Part shown: piece by piece, positions 38,020 through 43,754 of the stretch | How positions within the stretch are numbered: the first letter of the stretch is position 1 | Layout of the letters: each line of letters begins with the position of its first letter | Assembly (NCBI RefSeq): GCF_015690345.1 | Contig: NZ_JADPUN010000216.1 | Coordinates: 1-44,426, forward strand | Direction: 5' to 3' | From: Plantactinospora alkalitolerans | Lineage (GTDB): Bacteria; Actinomycetota; Actinomycetes; Mycobacteriales; Micromonosporaceae | DNA length: 44,426 bases | Notes under the pieces: generated by a model | What the model was told of the DNA's origin: nothing | The model's database searches: none | What the model saw: only the letters and a program-made list of their open reading frames with translations | Made by a program: the position numbers and the translations under genes

Positions 38020-39246
38020 TCAGCCCGGAAGAGTCACCTGCGCCGGGGTCGACCGCAGGGCGGTGGTGCCGTCGCCCAGCTGTCCCACGCCGTTGTTGCC
38101 CCAGCACCAGAGGCTGGCGTCGGTGCGGAGCGCGCAGCTGTGATAGCCGGGTGCGAAGCCGCTGGCCCAGGTGGTGGCGGTGCCGACCCGGACGGGGGCG
38201 AACCGGTGAGTCGTGGTGCCGTCGCCCAACTGTCCGGTGTTGTTGTTGCCCCAACACCAGAGGCTGCCGTCGGTGCGGGTCGCACACGACGAGTCGTCGC
38301 GCGCGTTGACCCTGGTCCAGGTGGTGCCACTGACCTGGACCGGTGAGGTCTGGTAGATGCCGCTGACACCCAGCTGTCCGTACCCGTTCTCACCCCAGCA
38401 CCACAGGGTCCTGTCGGTGCGGACCGCGCAGGTGTGGGCGTACCCGGCCGTTACGCCGGTCCACGTGGTGGCGGTACCGACCTGCGCCGGACTTGTCCGG
38501 TAGCTCTGGATACCGAGACCGAGCTGTCCGTTCGAGCTGTCACCCCAGCACCACAGGGTGCCGTCGGTACGGGCGGCGCAGCTGTGCGCGAAGCCGGTCG
38601 TGACGCTCGCCCAGTTGGTCGCCGTGCCCACCTGTACCGGAGTGGCCGCGTTCTCGAGGGCGGCACCGGTGCCCAGCTGCCCGTTGCGGTTGGAGCCCCA
38701 GCACCACAGGGTGCCGTCGCTCCGGATGGCACAGGTGTGACTGTCGGCGGCGCTGACGCTTGCCCAGGTGGTGGCGCTGCCGATACGCACCGGGGTGTTC
38801 CGGTTCGTGGCGGTGCCGTCACCAAGCTGGCTCCGGGAGTTGCGGCCCCAGCACCACAGCGTCCCGTCGGTCTGTATCGCACAGGTGAAGCCGCCGCCGG
38901 CGTCGATACCGGCCCAGGTGGTGGCGTTGCCGATACGCACCGGGGCGATCCGGTTCGTGGCGGTGCCGTCACCAAGCTGGCCGCTGGAGTTACTGCCCCA
39001 GCACCAGAGTGTTCCGTCGGTACCGATCGCGCAGGTGTGTGCGTTGCCCGCGGTGATGCTGGAAACCGCCGGGGCGGCGACCGAGACGTTCAGGGAGCCA
39101 CGCTCGGCGGGACTGACGCCTGCTGCCGCCGGGCCCGCTGAAAGGCCAATGGCGAGCACGACGATTCCGGCCGATGCCGCCGAGGCGAGGATGGTTCTCG
39201 TCGAACGCCGCCATTGAGCCCGCAGCCAACCGTCCTGATTTTCCAT
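38020..39246 (-). CDS. Secreted RCC1-repeat protein
   Basis: A 408-residue secreted protein. A signal peptide covers about 1-43 (ILASAASAGIVVLAIGLSAGPAAA). The rest is seven RCC1-like blades of about 50 residues, each with CAxxTDGTLWCWGxN followed by GQLGDGT and P..VGxATTWA. Seven blades make one complete beta-propeller. Each blade has two Cys, suggesting disulphide-stabilised extracellular repeats. The family mediates binding; no enzymatic motif is present. ATG 39246 is chosen because GGGGAGAA lies 7 bases upstream and the signal peptide starts there. The repeats are also clear at DNA level, about 150 bp per unit. Confidence 0.92.
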   Translation of the reverse strand: MENQDGWLRAQWRRSTRTILASAASAGIVVLAIGLSAGPAAAGVSPAERGSLNVSVAAPAVSSITAGNAHTCAIGTDGTLWCWGSNSSGQLGDGTATNRIAPVRIGNATTWAGIDAGGGFTCAIQTDGTLWCWGRNSRSQLGDGTATNRNTPVRIGSATTWASVSAADSHTCAIRSDGTLWCWGSNRNGQLGTGAALENAATPVQVGTATNWASVTTGFAHSCAARTDGTLWCWGDSSNGQLGLGIQSYRTSPAQVGTATTWTGVTAGYAHTCAVRTDRTLWCWGENGYGQLGVSGIYQTSPVQVSGTTWTRVNARDDSSCATRTDGSLWCWGNNNTGQLGDGTTTHRFAPVRVGTATTWASGFAPGYHSCALRTDASLWCWGNNGVGQLGDGTTALRSTPAQVTLPG

Positions 39247-39984
39247 GTAATGTTCTCCCCAAATGACGTCGATACCTAGACGGTGGAGGCGGCATTGCCC
39301 TGGTGAGGTCGCCAGCGACCCCACCAATTCATAGCATCGATCTTCGCCATTGACTAGGGGCAATGCAAGACCTCGGTCCAGTCGTCGGCCGTACGCTCAG
39401 GTCGGCTGCCGTCGACCCCGAGTCGTCGCGTACCGATGCGGCCAGGTCGACGCGCCTGGACGGTCTCGCGCCAGGAGGCGCCTCCATGGTGGCTACCGGG
39501 AGTGACAGCGTCGGCACCACTGCGCTCCGCACGGCGGATCCGGATGACTGGGGCGGTCACGGGACCGCCTAGGTCAGGACAACTCGGGATTTGGGTAGAG
39601 AATCGGATTGCCTCTGGTTCCGCCGCATAGGCTCGTGCGCTGCCAGGTCGACGTGCATTTGATTGGGAATGGACCATTGGGCCGGGAAGGTGGCTGGTAT
39701 TGCCGTGGAAAATCCAGTCGAGGAGGTGACCGTATTCAGTTCGGCGCCGGCCCGGCGACGCCGCGCCCCAGGGCCGCAAACTGCGCCGAATGTTCGGATA
39801 CACCAACCACGCATCACGTTACTTCAGTATCGGCGCCGGCCTTTCTGACGCTATCCGAACCACCCGCTGTACTCGATGGGACGGCGTACCGTTCTCGTCG
39901 CGGTCGTGCTCGCTCGGCGTTCGTCCCATCCGCCAGCACGTCTCGGGGCAGGCGCGGGTGATGCACGACATCACCGTCACGGCC
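39247..39984. other. 738-bp region without a supported gene
   Basis: It lies between the RCC1 start and the end of the sigma factor gene, so it must hold the RCC1 promoter. GC content is lower than in flanking genes around 39600-39730. Several short open frames exist on both strands but none shows codon bias, a ribosome binding site with a hydrophobic or domain-like start, or a known family. I see no clear operator. Confidence 0.45.
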
Positions 39985-40920
39985 TCAGCCGTTCGTCCAG
40001 GGGCGGAGCTTGTCAGGGTTTCGTACTGCCCAGACGTGCTTGATCCGGTCGCCTGCGACGTCGAACGCCATCACCGTCACGGTGCGGCCGTCCAGCTCTG
40101 CCACCAGGCCGGGCTGGCCGTTGACCGTACGCTCCAGGAGCGTCAGTCCGGGTGCCCTGCCCGTGATGTCGACGAGGACGCGCGCGATCTGCTCGCCGCC
40201 TTCGACCGGGCGGAGTTCGGCGCTGGCGAGACCGCCGCCGTCGCCGACGGCCGTGGCGTCGGGGTCGAGGAGGCCGATGAGGGCGTCGATGTCGTTAGCC
40301 TCCCAAGCCTGCTTGAAGGCCCTCACGATGCTGGCCTGCTGGGCTGTCGGAGTGGCGAGGGCCTGCACCGCATGGATGCGGCGGCGGGCTGAGGAGGCCA
40401 ACTGGCGGCAGGCGGCCGGGGTACGGCCGACGATCTCGGCCACCTCGGCGAAGGAGTAGCGGAAGACGTCGTGCAGGACGAACGCGACGCGCTCGGCCGG
40501 GGTCATCGATTCGAGCACGACGAGGAAGGCCATGCTGACCGATTCGTCGAGGGTGACCCGGTCGGCCGGGTCGACGATGGCGGCGCCCGGCCGACCGCTG
40601 ATCCATTCCGTCCGATCGGGCAGCGGCTCCGGAATCCATTCGCCGACGTAGCGCTCCCGCCGGGCCCGGGCCGAACCGAGCAGGTCGAGACAGATGCGCC
40701 CGGCGACCTTCGTCAGCCAGGCGCCGGGGGATTCGATGACTTCCTGTTGCTGCCGGGACATGCCGTACCAGCGGGCGTAGGTCTCCTGTACGACATCCTC
40801 GGCGTCGGCCAGCGAACCCAGCAGCCGGTACGCGAGATTGATCAACTGACGCCGCTCGCTCATGATCGCGCCCAGGTTCGGATCGGACCGGCCGGACTCT
40901 GGCTCGGATCGCCTGCTCAT
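39985..40920 (-). CDS. ECF41-family RNA polymerase sigma factor (SigJ-like)
   Basis: A 311-residue sigma factor. Sigma-2 spans about 22-90 (NLAYRLLGSLADAEDVVQETYARW); the linker carries WIPEPL (95-100). Sigma-4 is about 120-182 (LESMTPAERVAFVLHDVFRYSF and a helix-turn-helix). A SnoaL-like C-terminal extension (about 185-311) carries the ECF41 hallmarks DGGG (227-230) and NPDKL (301-305). In this group the extension replaces an anti-sigma factor and tunes activity. ATG 40920 is chosen, with GGGAG about 13 bases upstream. It is divergent from a WrbA-like reductase, and both have ECF41-type promoter motifs, so it probably drives itself and that gene. ECF41 genes are typically paired with an oxidoreductase, carboxymuconolactone decarboxylase or epimerase. 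Confidence 0.94.
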   Translation of the reverse strand: MSRRSEPESGRSDPNLGAIMSERRQLINLAYRLLGSLADAEDVVQETYARWYGMSRQQQEVIESPGAWLTKVAGRICLDLLGSARARRERYVGEWIPEPLPDRTEWISGRPGAAIVDPADRVTLDESVSMAFLVVLESMTPAERVAFVLHDVFRYSFAEVAEIVGRTPAACRQLASSARRRIHAVQALATPTAQQASIVRAFKQAWEANDIDALIGLLDPDATAVGDGGGLASAELRPVEGGEQIARVLVDITGRAPGLTLLERTVNGQPGLVAELDGRTVTVMAFDVAGDRIKHVWAVRNPDKLRPWTNG

Positions 40921-40965
40921 GGTGTCGCCGACTCCCTTGCTCGCAGTTGTTGCTCCCACCGGTTC

Positions 40966-40992
40966 GACGAGGCAACGCACCCAACTGTGAGG
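40966..40992 (-). promoter_or_regulatory. ECF41-type promoter of the sigma factor gene
   Basis: On the minus strand CCTCACA (40992-40986), 16 bp and CGTC (40969-40966). This matches the published ECF41 target pattern TGTCACA-16-CGTC at 5 of 7 and 4 of 4 positions. It lies 45 bp before the sigma factor start. Confidence 0.65.
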
Positions 40993-41003
40993 TTGGCAGC
41001 CCG

Positions 41004-41030
41004 CCTGACATTCCGACGGGTTGTGTCGTC
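41004..41030 (+). promoter_or_regulatory. ECF41-type promoter of the WrbA-like gene
   Basis: CCTGACA (41004-41010), 16 bp and CGTC (41027-41030), the mirror partner of the sigma promoter, at 4 of 7 and 4 of 4 positions to the ECF41 pattern. It lies 33 bp before the reductase start. Confidence 0.6.
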
Positions 41031-41063
41031 GTACCACTGGGACAAGCAAGGGAGAGACCGATC

Positions 41064-41672
41064 ATGGAACCCGTGAACGTCGCGATCATCTACTACAGTG
41101 CCACCGGCACCGTGCACGCCCTGGCGCAGGCCGCCGTCGAGGGTGCGGTGAAGGCCGGCGCACACGTACGACTGCGTAAGGTCGCCGAAACGGCCCCGCC
41201 GGAGGCGATCAGTGCCAGGCCGGAATGGGCCCGACACCTCCAGGACACCGCCGACGTCGCCGAGGCCGGCCACGACGACCTGGACTGGGCCGATGCGGTG
41301 CTGTTCGGCACACCCACCCGTTTCGGCAACCCGGCCAGCCAGCTCAGGACGTTCATCGACACCACCGGCGGCCTGTGGTACCAAGGCAGGCTCGCGGACA
41401 AGGTGTACTCGGCCTTCACCGCCTCCAACACCGCGCACGGCGGGCAGGAATCCACCCTCCTCGCGCTTGGGAACACCTTCTACCACTGGGGTGGCATCAT
41501 CGTGCCCCCCGGCTACACCGACCCCGTCCAGTTCCAGTCGGGCAACCCCTACGGCACCTCCCACGTGGCCGGGGACGGCCCGCCCGGCGAGGTGGCCCTG
41601 CGGGCGGCCCGTCACCAGGCCCGCCGCGTCGTCGAGGCGGCGGGCGCACTCAAGGCGGGCCGCGCCGCCTGA
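41064..41672 (+). CDS. WrbA-like NAD(P)H:quinone oxidoreductase, type IV
   Basis: A 202-residue flavodoxin-fold protein. It has the FMN phosphate loop IIYYSATGTVHALA, DAVLFGTPTRFGNPASQLRTFID, and FTASNTAHGGQESTLLALGNTFYHWGGIIVPPGY, all WrbA-family landmarks. It reduces quinones by two electrons and protects against oxidative or quinone stress. ATG 41064 has GGGAGAG about 8 bases upstream. The divergent ECF41 sigma factor and shared mirror-image promoters make it the sigma factor's partner oxidoreductase. Confidence 0.94.
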   Translation: MEPVNVAIIYYSATGTVHALAQAAVEGAVKAGAHVRLRKVAETAPPEAISARPEWARHLQDTADVAEAGHDDLDWADAVLFGTPTRFGNPASQLRTFIDTTGGLWYQGRLADKVYSAFTASNTAHGGQESTLLALGNTFYHWGGIIVPPGYTDPVQFQSGNPYGTSHVAGDGPPGEVALRAARHQARRVVEAAGALKAGRAA

Positions 41673-42185: not shown

Positions 42186-43253
42186 CTACCGGTTGATGTC
42201 CTTGGTGAGGCAGATGCTTCCGTCCGCCGAGGCCGGTGGCGCCGGCTGGTATCCCTCGCTGCGGTAGAGGCCGATGGTCCGCTGATTGTCGGCACCGGTG
42301 GACAACACGATGCGCTGGCACTCCGGCTCGACGGCGGCTTCGGCGGTGTGGAGCAGCCACCGGCCAAGCCCTCGACCCCGCAGGTCCGGTACGACGCCGA
42401 GGCGACCCACGTGCCAGTCAGTCTCGACGCGGCGGGTCCGTACCATGCCCAGAAGTCGACCGTCCCGCCAGAGACCCATGGTGTGCCAGGTCGCCAGCCA
42501 CTCCCGCACCTGCTCCGGCGACTCGTGCAGCGCCGGGATCGCCACGGTGTCGTTGGCGATGGCCTCGTCGACCCAGCAGCACCGCTGCAGCACGGTGACC
42601 TCGGGCGCGTCGTCGGGGACCAGTCGCCTCAGGTAGGACCCCGGCAGTGGCCCGGGTGACGCCCCGGTCCGGCCCCGCTCGCGCATCGGCCGGAGGGCGT
42701 GCGCAACCCGGACCAGTTCGTCCAGGACACCGACGGCCGCCGCGTCGAGGACCGCGTTCGGCCGTAGCCGCCCGTCCTCCGTCGCGTCGCCGAGCCGGAT
42801 CGCGACCGTGGCGCCCAACGGGACCAGACGTAGCGTGGTCACCACCTGCTTCGCGTGCTCGACGGCCCGGGTACCGGCCGAGGTGTTGCCGTAGCTGACA
42901 AAGCCGATCGGCTTCCACGCCCACTCGCGGCCCAGGTAGTCCAGTGCGTTCTTCAGGGTTGCCGGCATCCCGTGGTTGTATTCCGGCGTCACCACGACGA
43001 ATCCGTCCGCCGCGTCCACGATCGCGCTCCACCGGCGGGTGTGCGCGTGCCGGTAGACACCCGATGAGGGATGTTCCTCTTCGTCCAGGAACGGCAGGTC
43101 GAGATCGCTGAGGGCCACCGGTACGAGTTCGACGCCGAGTTCCGTGGCGCGAGGCCGGGCCGCCTCGACCCACCACTGTCCCACTGCGGGACCGAGGGCG
43201 CCCGGGCGGGTGCTGCAGATCAACACGAGGACACGTGGCAGGTTCGTTGACAT
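42186..43253 (-). CDS. NAD(P)H-dependent FMN reductase fused to GNAT acetyltransferase
   Basis: A 355-residue two-domain protein. Residues about 5-185 are a flavodoxin-like NADPH-dependent FMN reductase: VLVLICSTRPGALGPAVG at the FMN phosphate site and VVVTPEYNHGMPATLKNALDYL (PEYNHGMP 90-97). After a Pro/Gly-rich linker, residues about 205-355 are a GNAT domain with RLGVVPDLRGRGLGRWLL (acetyl-CoA loop GRGLGRW 293-299). Such bifunctional proteins are known from other actinomycetes; the link between the reactions is unclear. ATG 43253 is leaderless: TAGACT ends 7 bases before it. The start codon lies in the operator shared with the divergent MarR gene. Confidence 0.92.
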   Translation of the reverse strand: MSTNLPRVLVLICSTRPGALGPAVGQWWVEAARPRATELGVELVPVALSDLDLPFLDEEEHPSSGVYRHAHTRRWSAIVDAADGFVVVTPEYNHGMPATLKNALDYLGREWAWKPIGFVSYGNTSAGTRAVEHAKQVVTTLRLVPLGATVAIRLGDATEDGRLRPNAVLDAAAVGVLDELVRVAHALRPMRERGRTGASPGPLPGSYLRRLVPDDAPEVTVLQRCCWVDEAIANDTVAIPALHESPEQVREWLATWHTMGLWRDGRLLGMVRTRRVETDWHVGRLGVVPDLRGRGLGRWLLHTAEAAVEPECQRIVLSTGADNQRTIGLYRSEGYQPAPPASADGSICLTKDINR

Positions 43254-43290
43254 GTAAACGAGTCTAGGCGGTAGATTGATTACATGTCAA
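43247..43290. promoter_or_regulatory. MarR operator overlapping both start codons of divergent leaderless genes
   Basis: TTGACATGTAA (43247-43257) and TTACATGTCAA (43280-43290) are a perfect 11-bp inverted repeat. Each arm is also nearly self-palindromic (TTnACATGTnAA), so it may be two MarR-dimer sites. Each contains a start codon: 43253 (minus) and 43284 (plus). Between them the -10 boxes TAGACT (43266-43261, minus) and TAGATT (43272-43277, plus) lie 6-7 bases from their starts. Confidence 0.75.
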
Positions 43291-43754
43291 AGAAATCCTC
43301 GGCTCAGGCCGTGCGCTGGCTGACCCCGGACGAGGAACGGGCGTGGCGGGCGTTCCGCCGGGTGATGGTCGCCGTCCAGGCCGGCACGGCGCGTGACCTG
43401 GCGGAGATCGGACTGTCCGAGGCCGACTACGAGGTGCTCAGCACCCTCTCGGAGAGGCCCGACCGGACCAGCCCGCTGCACGAGCAGGCCGACAAGATGG
43501 GGTGGTCACGCAGCCGCCTGTCCAGGCATGCCACCCGGATGGAGGCACGCGGCCTCCTGCGTCGCGCGCCCGATCCGGCGGATGGCAGGGGCTGCCTCCT
43601 CATTCTCACCGAGCACGGCCTGGACACCCTCGACGGCGCCGCACCGACCCACGTCGAGTCGGTACGACGCCACTTCATCGAACGGCTCGCGGCGGAGGAC
43701 CTTGCTGCCATCGAACAGATCGCCCGAAGGGTGGAGGGACCGCCAGACCGGTGA
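43284..43754 (+). CDS. MarR-family transcriptional regulator
   Basis: A 156-residue winged-helix regulator: LSEADYEVLSTLSERPDRTSPLHE, the recognition helix region MGWSRSRLSRHATRMEARGLL, then the wing RRAPDPADGRGCLLILTEHG. It is typical of MarR proteins that repress a divergent oxidoreductase and are released by phenolic, quinone or oxidative signals. ATG 43284 has TAGATT ending 6 bases upstream (leaderless). It is divergent from the FMN-reductase/GNAT gene with only 30 bp between the start codons, in which the operator lies. Confidence 0.93.
   Translation: MSKKSSAQAVRWLTPDEERAWRAFRRVMVAVQAGTARDLAEIGLSEADYEVLSTLSERPDRTSPLHEQADKMGWSRSRLSRHATRMEARGLLRRAPDPADGRGCLLILTEHGLDTLDGAAPTHVESVRRHFIERLAAEDLAAIEQIARRVEGPPDR

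What the first reader, a model, noticed from the sequence alone, without database searches (positions are those of the whole stretch)
40932..41054. Mirror-image ECF41 promoters inside a quasi-palindromic regulatory island
Sequence: the sigma factor and the WrbA-like gene diverge over 143 bp. On each strand I find CCTSACA-16-CGTC (CCTCACA for the sigma gene, CCTGACA for wrbA). Both fit the ECF41 target pattern TGTCACA-16-CGTC with exact spacing. The whole region is an imperfect inverted repeat capped by a perfect 10-bp repeat that contains each Shine-Dalgarno. Knowledge: ECF41 factors autoregulate and drive an adjacent oxidoreductase. Inference: the second promoter arose by inverted duplication, giving matched output of sigma factor and enzyme, and the AGCAAGGGAG ends may also pair in long transcripts to couple translation.
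Basis: partly seen in the sequence, partly recalled or inferred. Interest (0 to 1): 0.75.

Follow-up and report, generated by a model that had tools for sequence, protein, structure and literature searches.

The report
Back-to-back sigma-factor promoters, fixed spacing
An actinobacterium carries two mirror-facing promoter-like sites with which a sigma factor probably switches on both itself and a neighbouring enzyme; this pairing is already known for the ECF41 sigma family, but in this branch the two sites sit a strikingly constant 11 base pairs apart around a conserved middle sequence.

Summary
The two promoter-like sites are real: CCTCACA-N16-CGTC faces the sigma gene, CCTGACA-N16-CGTC faces wrbA. 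They are the only such sites in the 44-kb window and two of three in the 9.2-Mb genome. The sigma factor is ECF41/SigJ-like. Divergent ECF41 loci with a motif before both genes were published in 2012 (PMC3426412), so the core claim is known biology.

In sampled actinobacterial genomes I found 86 twin sites with a free gap of 0-30 bp; 49 of 86 have exactly 11 bp between the -35 boxes, 70 of 86 have 9-12. The 11-bp gap has its own conserved sequence, YSGGCGCGTCR. The module is kept while the driven gene changes.

Other parts fail. The 10-bp 'cap' is two similar Shine-Dalgarno regions, not conserved. Symmetry mostly reflects one promoter consensus written twice, and the two sides differ systematically, against 'matched output'.

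Most likely: positive autoregulation plus cargo activation from back-to-back ECF41 promoters. Whether two polymerases compete there, and what reads the middle box, is untested.

The parts
39985..40920 (-). ECF41/SigJ-like sigma factor gene, 311 aa
40932..40941 (-). AGCAAGGGAG with the sigma gene's Shine-Dalgarno-like GGGAG; one arm of the 10-bp inverted repeat
   Evidence: not conserved
40966..40969 (-). -10 element CGTC of the sigma promoter
40986..40992 (-). -35 element CCTCACA of the sigma promoter
40993..41003 (.). 11-bp gap between the -35 boxes (TTGGCAGCCCG), a degenerate copy of the conserved centre box YSGGCGCGTCR
41004..41010 (+). -35 element CCTGACA of the wrbA promoter
41027..41030 (+). 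-10 element CGTC of the wrbA promoter
41045..41054 (+). AGCAAGGGAG with wrbA's Shine-Dalgarno-like GGGAG; other arm of the 10-bp repeat
41064..41672 (+). WrbA-type NAD(P)H:quinone oxidoreductase gene, 202 aa

Best explanation
A conserved divergent control module of an actinobacterial ECF41 sigma subclade. The sigma factor, when its C-terminal domain allows it, recruits RNA polymerase to two back-to-back promoters whose -35 boxes face each other across 11 bp. One raises sigma (positive feedback), the other raises the cargo enzyme (a WrbA-type quinone reductase here). Geometry and middle sequence are kept while the cargo gene is exchanged. Shown by computation: both motifs, their rarity, their conservation, the preferred 11-bp gap, the conserved gap sequence, cargo exchange. 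Inferred: that this sigma reads both promoters; that selection and not descent alone holds the gap; and that the closeness makes the two loading events interact, most likely by competition (clearest where the gap is 0-3 bp). The confidence below is for autoregulation plus cargo activation through a conserved module; for the interaction of the two polymerases I would say 0.4.
For: Only two such sites in the window, each before one of the two genes. All 8 relatives with a whole or nearly whole divergent wrbA, and one with a wrbA fragment, have a site on each side (two of the wrbA-side boxes end in G). 39 of 80 nearest sigma relatives have twins with 16-nt spacers, 5 more have looser twins. Protein-blind scans: 13 of 298, 19 of 394 and 59 of 200 genomes have twins (samples overlap), the reversed control none; an ECF41 homologue lies beside 53 of 55 fetched sites. 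Gap 11 in 49 of 86 sites, 9-12 in 70 of 86; gaps 31-61 in 3 of the 200 genomes. Gap sequence conserved. At least 41 cargo changes on the sigma tree. Published ECF41 work: motif before both genes in many divergent loci (PMC3426412).
Against: No transcript or binding data. 24 of 80 relatives have no motif within 400 bp upstream and 12 have one side only. The -35 departs from the published TGTCACA. The window's centre box is degenerate. TGTSACA twins of other ECF41s use gaps 6 and 20-24, and gaps 0-3 work without the box, so 11 bp is not a general need. The 86 sites are related by descent, and the gap statistics do not correct for it.
Confidence: 0.72

Rival explanations
1. Two independent ECF41 promoters that happen to lie close; the 11-bp gap and its sequence are inherited by descent from one ancestral locus and the polymerases do not affect each other.
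For: The gap class follows the sigma tree in part (runs of gap 3 and gap 0 in single clades); the sigma leader next to the module is conserved too (mean 0.49 bits, and 1.00 in the 10 bases next to the -10).
Against: The gap sequence (0.98 bits per column) is kept better than the middle of the spacers (0.57, 0.69) and the cargo leader (0.23) of the same loci, although cargo genes were exchanged often.
Confidence: 0.35
2. A third factor reads the centre box: a regulator bound at the nearly palindromic GRCGCGYC between the -35 boxes blocks or helps both promoters at once, and 11 bp is the room it needs.
For: Box within one mismatch in 28 of 38 gap-11 loci (13% of shuffled gaps), 3 of 9 with gap 9-10 and 4 of 11 with gap 12-14.
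Against: Loci with gap 0-3 have no room for the box; no such regulator is known to me; the window's copy is degenerate.
Confidence: 0.25
3. One reading: recent inverted duplication giving two equal promoters with matched output, ends pairing in RNA.
For: The window's arms agree at 29 of 55 non-motif pairs, tied second of 38 loci; spacers are slightly more alike within than across loci (0.547 and 0.515, p 0.001, 64 loci); L145 has a perfect 68-bp palindrome.
Against: Whole arms: within-locus mean 21.9, cross-locus 21.5. The window's two spacers are 50% identical; 23 of 63 foreign cargo spacers fit its sigma spacer, and 51 of 63 foreign sigma spacers its cargo spacer, as well or better. Direction-specific bases: fourth -35 base C (sigma) / G (cargo) in 22 loci, reversed in 2; CT|GT before the -10 in 46, reversed in 0, of 91 loci. 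The 10-bp ends are not conserved.
Confidence: 0.08
4. The sites are read by another sigma factor, one of the genome's further ECF sigmas, and the neighbour sigma is not autoregulated.
For: The genome encodes 22 matches to this sigma at E <= 0.001, five of them close; no experiment ties this sigma to these sites.
Against: The site pair travels with this sigma type (53 of 55 fetched sites); the five close paralogues have no exact copy upstream (one-mismatch matches in three of them) and differ at region 4.2 residue 177, and four of five at 181.
Confidence: 0.08

Closest known systems
Divergent ECF41 loci <ECF< >COE> (Wecke et al. 2012, PMC3426412; sections 20 and 25 read, other passages seen)
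   Same: ECF41 sigma, divergent oxidoreductase-type neighbour, bipartite motif with 16-bp spacer and CGTC before sigma and cargo genes (55 such loci, 36 with a sigma-side and 41 with a cargo-side motif)
   Different: -35 CCTSACA instead of TGTCACA; fixed 11-bp distance, centre box and direction-specific bases, which the sections and passages I saw do not mention
M. tuberculosis SigJ (solved structure 5xe7)
   Same: Sequence match over residues 22-305 of 311, E 2.3e-49
   Different: Its target promoters were not compared here; the paper on it is not held
Bidirectional promoters of E. coli (PMC12825309; abstract and introduction read)
   Same: Pseudo-symmetric DNA with divergent transcription and possible polymerase competition
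   Different: Those share one -10 element with start sites most often 18 bp apart; here the -35 boxes are central and 57 bp lie between the two -10 elements

Membership tests
ECF41 sigma factors | Sigma regions 2 and 4 (ECF core) | tested here: met
   Pfam Sigma70_r2 and Sigma70_r4_2 above cut-off; NCBIfam SigJ subfamily 306.9 bits, cut-off 271. The related model TIGR02957 is below its cut-off (286.9 of 323.25)
ECF41 sigma factors | Large C-terminal extension (SnoaL-like) | tested here: met
   Alignment with SigJ 5xe7 runs to residue 305 of 311; Pfam SnoaL_2 alone is weak (20.7 bits, cut-off 27)
ECF41 sigma factors | WLPEP motif in the linker between the two sigma domains | tested here: met
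   WIPEP, one conservative change (motif from PMC3426412)
ECF41 sigma factors | Neighbouring carboxymuconolactone decarboxylase, oxidoreductase or epimerase gene | tested here: met
   FMN_red and Flavodoxin_2 hits of the wrbA-like neighbour; both are on the paper's oxidoreductase list
ECF41 sigma factors | No anti-sigma gene next door | tested here: inconclusive
   Only ORFs of 38.5-43.5 kb were listed and four further ones scanned with Pfam; none is an anti-sigma factor
ECF41 target promoters | TGTCACA-N16-CGTC | tested here: inconclusive
   Spacing and CGTC exact, -35 at 5 of 7 and 4 of 7 positions; relatives share CCTSACA
ECF41 target promoters | Activation by the cognate sigma | not testable with these tools
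   Needs in vitro transcription or a sigma deletion
Bidirectional promoters in the sense of PMC12825309 | Divergent start sites on either side of, or within, one shared -10 element | tested here: not met
   Two separate -10 elements, 40966-40969 and 41027-41030

The most novel reading that the evidence does not exclude
The two promoters and the middle box act as one element: a -35-centred bidirectional ECF promoter whose spacing sets how sigma-holoenzyme is shared between sigma and cargo, so that self-activation is capped and the sigma-to-cargo ratio is set by DNA geometry, with cargo genes plugged in and out of a standing control module.
Probability: 0.3. Interest if true: 0.6.

Novelty: new variant of a known kind. 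Interest (0 to 1): 0.42.

Why it matters
ECF41 sigmas lack a neighbouring anti-sigma factor (PMC3426412), and positive autoregulation needs a brake. A conserved geometry in which the sigma's own promoter competes with its output promoter would be such a brake, readable from DNA alone. The twin pattern is also a good marker for this sigma subclade: an ECF41 homologue lies beside 53 of 55 fetched sites (of the other two, one contig was cut short and one site, L102, has no sigma homologue in its 3-kb locus), so it can point to ECF41 targets away from the sigma gene.

Tried and rejected
Regulon search: CCTSACA-N16-CGTC over the own genome gave one further match, antisense inside a long open frame, and no more matches than the reversed control; rejected as a target. 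RNA pairing of the 10-bp ends: the same sense sequence lies in both leaders; over 91 loci the longest shared k-mer is 10 in L001 and, with another sequence, in L127, median 6; rejected. Helical phasing of the gap (0, 11, 22): suggestive in this clade, but gap 3 is common (10 of 91) and TGTSACA twins use 6, 20, 23 and 24; not claimed. Centre box as a general upstream element of single promoters: 12 one-sided loci were too few, and several look like weakened twins; undecided. Co-variation of region 4.2 (S177/R181 here, R/H in the nine TGTSACA sigmas) with the -35: L087 and L088 do not fit; a lead only. First cargo calls by longest ORF picked wrong frames and were replaced by a GC3-based choice, which may still err (L126) and found none in L130.

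Literature: searched open-licence PubMed Central text; no listing I saw describes the fixed gap or centre box. The 2019 and 2021 ECF classification papers were not read, so I do not claim that it is absent from print.

Full report
The observation. The sigma gene (39985-40920, minus) and the wrbA-like gene (41064-41672, plus) diverge over 143 bp. CCTCACA-N16-CGTC points to the sigma gene (40992-40966), CCTGACA-N16-CGTC to wrbA (41004-41030), with 11 bp between the -35 boxes. There is no other match in the window. The 9.2-Mb genome holds three, the reversed control four; the third match lies antisense within a long open frame. The 10-bp repeat is real but centred about 5 bp away from the promoter symmetry.

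The proteins. The sigma factor passes the SigJ subfamily cut-off of NCBIfam, has Pfam regions 2 and 4, a WIPEP linker, and matches M. tuberculosis SigJ (5xe7) over residues 22-305. The neighbour passes the cut-offs of two WrbA-type NAD(P)H:quinone oxidoreductase models. Five close paralogues in the genome (L002-L006; 34-41% identical) have no exact copy of the motif in about 1.5 kb upstream; L002, L003 and L005 have one-mismatch matches 289 bp or more away.

What is already known. Wecke et al. 2012 (PMC3426412; sections 20 and 25 read, passages searched) defined TGTCACA-N16-CGTC, tested target promoters in two organisms, and listed 55 divergent loci, 36 with a sigma-side and 41 with a cargo-side motif, stating that often both genes have it. 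Two facing ECF41 promoters are therefore not new. The words palindrom, inverted and bidirectional do not occur in its main text. A review describes the C-terminal extension of ECF41 sigmas as inhibitory (PMC8999054, passage).

Conservation around the wrbA pair. Of the 88 loci held at that point, 8 relatives have a whole or nearly whole divergent wrbA and one a fragment; all 9 have a site on each side, two of them with CCTSACG on the wrbA side. Among the 80 nearest sigma relatives (a capped list), 39 have twins with 16-nt spacers and a gap up to 61; five more have a 17-nt spacer (L009) or gaps of -1, 89, 90 and 176; 12 have one side only; 24 have none within 400 bp by the pattern (one of them, L035, has CATCACA). 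The module is common but not universal.

The spacing. A pattern fixing both promoters (CCTSACA, N16, CGTC each) and leaving 0-30 bp between them was run over genomes without reference to any protein: 13 of 298 (order), 19 of 394 (class) and 59 of 200 genomes (family of G312) matched, the reversed control never (the samples overlap). From the printed matches, 86 distinct sites in 76 genomes have gaps 0 (7), 1 (1), 3 (3), 5 (1), 8 (1), 9 (4), 10 (12), 11 (49), 12 (5), 14 (1), 23 (2); two of the sites, in G740, have the same sequence. Gaps of 31-61 occur in 3 of the same 200 genomes. These sites are related and not independent. A quick tree of 91 sigmas, poorly resolved (15 of 88 inner branches starred), needs at least 34 gap-class changes, or 21 with gaps 9-14 pooled.

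The middle box. In 35 distinct oriented gap-11 sites the gap reads YSGGCGCGTCR. Its summed information is 10.8 bits, against 2.0 (maximum 2.7 of 2,000) when letters are shuffled within each gap; per column (0.98) it exceeds the middle of both spacers (0.57, 0.69), the sigma leader (0.49) and the cargo leader (0.23), and is like the spacer ends (1.04-1.57) and the ten bases past each -10 (1.00, 1.05). The shuffle does not correct for relatedness. The window's copy, TTGGCAGCCCG, is degenerate. Sites with gap 0-3 have no room for the box.

Cargo exchange. Outward genes of 91 twin loci fall into 13 rough similarity clusters, one locus (L130) yielding no ORF. Single members tested with Pfam are CMD (L013), FMN_red (L047), DoxX_2 (L034), SnoaL_4 (L027) and YceI (L024); L010 had no hit. 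At least 41 cargo changes are needed on the sigma tree, and gap 11 occurs in 12 of the 13 clusters. The control module stays, the cargo changes.

Symmetry and origin. The window's arms agree at 29 of 55 non-motif pairs (shuffles 15.0, sd 3.2), tied second of 38 gap-11 loci. Over the 38 loci the within-locus mean is 21.9 and the cross-locus mean 21.5; the window's arms against foreign arms give 21.7 and 23.4. So most of the symmetry is one consensus written twice, with some excess in the window. Spacers alone show a small within-locus excess (0.547 against 0.515, p 0.001, 64 loci; sigma with sigma 0.558, cargo with cargo 0.595). L145 has a perfect 68-bp palindrome across the module: inverted copying can happen. 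The two sides differ by direction: fourth -35 base C toward sigma and G toward cargo in 22 loci, reversed in 2 (56 have C on both sides, 11 G); CT before the sigma -10 and GT before the cargo -10 in 46 loci, reversed in 0, of 91 (not corrected for descent). The window follows both. This speaks for conserved, unequal tuning rather than matched output.

Other ECF41s. The same scan with TGTSACA boxes matched 9 of 246 genomes, reversed control none; gaps are 6 (five sites), 20, 23, 24 and 24. All 9 loci hold an ECF41-type homologue (39-50% identical), in L157 about 0.8 kb away. Twin promoters are thus wider than this clade; the 11-bp gap is not.

Mechanism. I commit to positive autoregulation plus cargo activation from back-to-back promoters, with the -35 boxes close enough that the two loading events probably interact. 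At gap 0-3 the two sigma-4 contacts abut and simultaneous loading looks unlikely (general knowledge of polymerase footprints, no call). At 11 bp it is open. Work on E. coli bidirectional promoters (PMC12825309, abstract and introduction) shows that polymerase competition at symmetric promoters occurs, and also that it is negligible at low basal activity; those share a -10 element and are another geometry.

Noticed in passing
window 42186-43253 (-) and 43284-43754 (+): An NADPH-dependent FMN reductase fused to a GNAT acetyltransferase domain, with a MarR-family gene diverging from it over only 30 bp.
   Followed up: partly
window 38020-39363 (-): A protein of RCC1-type repeats (7 matched stretches in Pfam) downstream of the sigma gene.
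   Followed up: no
   Followed up: no
L145 1499-1566: A perfect 68-bp palindrome spanning both promoters: the two sides are identical there, perhaps after inverted copying.
   Followed up: partly
L102 1501-1564: A twin promoter without a sigma homologue in its 3-kb locus, flanked on both sides by outward genes that resemble SnoaL-like cargo of other loci, one perhaps frame-shifted; the same genome has another twin next to an ECF41 sigma. Possibly a target in trans.
   Followed up: partly
L151-L159: TGTSACA twin promoters beside other ECF41-type sigmas, with gaps 6 or 20-24.
   Followed up: partly
P0001 residues 177 and 181: Region 4.2 has S and R here, R and H in the nine TGTSACA sigmas; two relatives do not fit.
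   Followed up: partly
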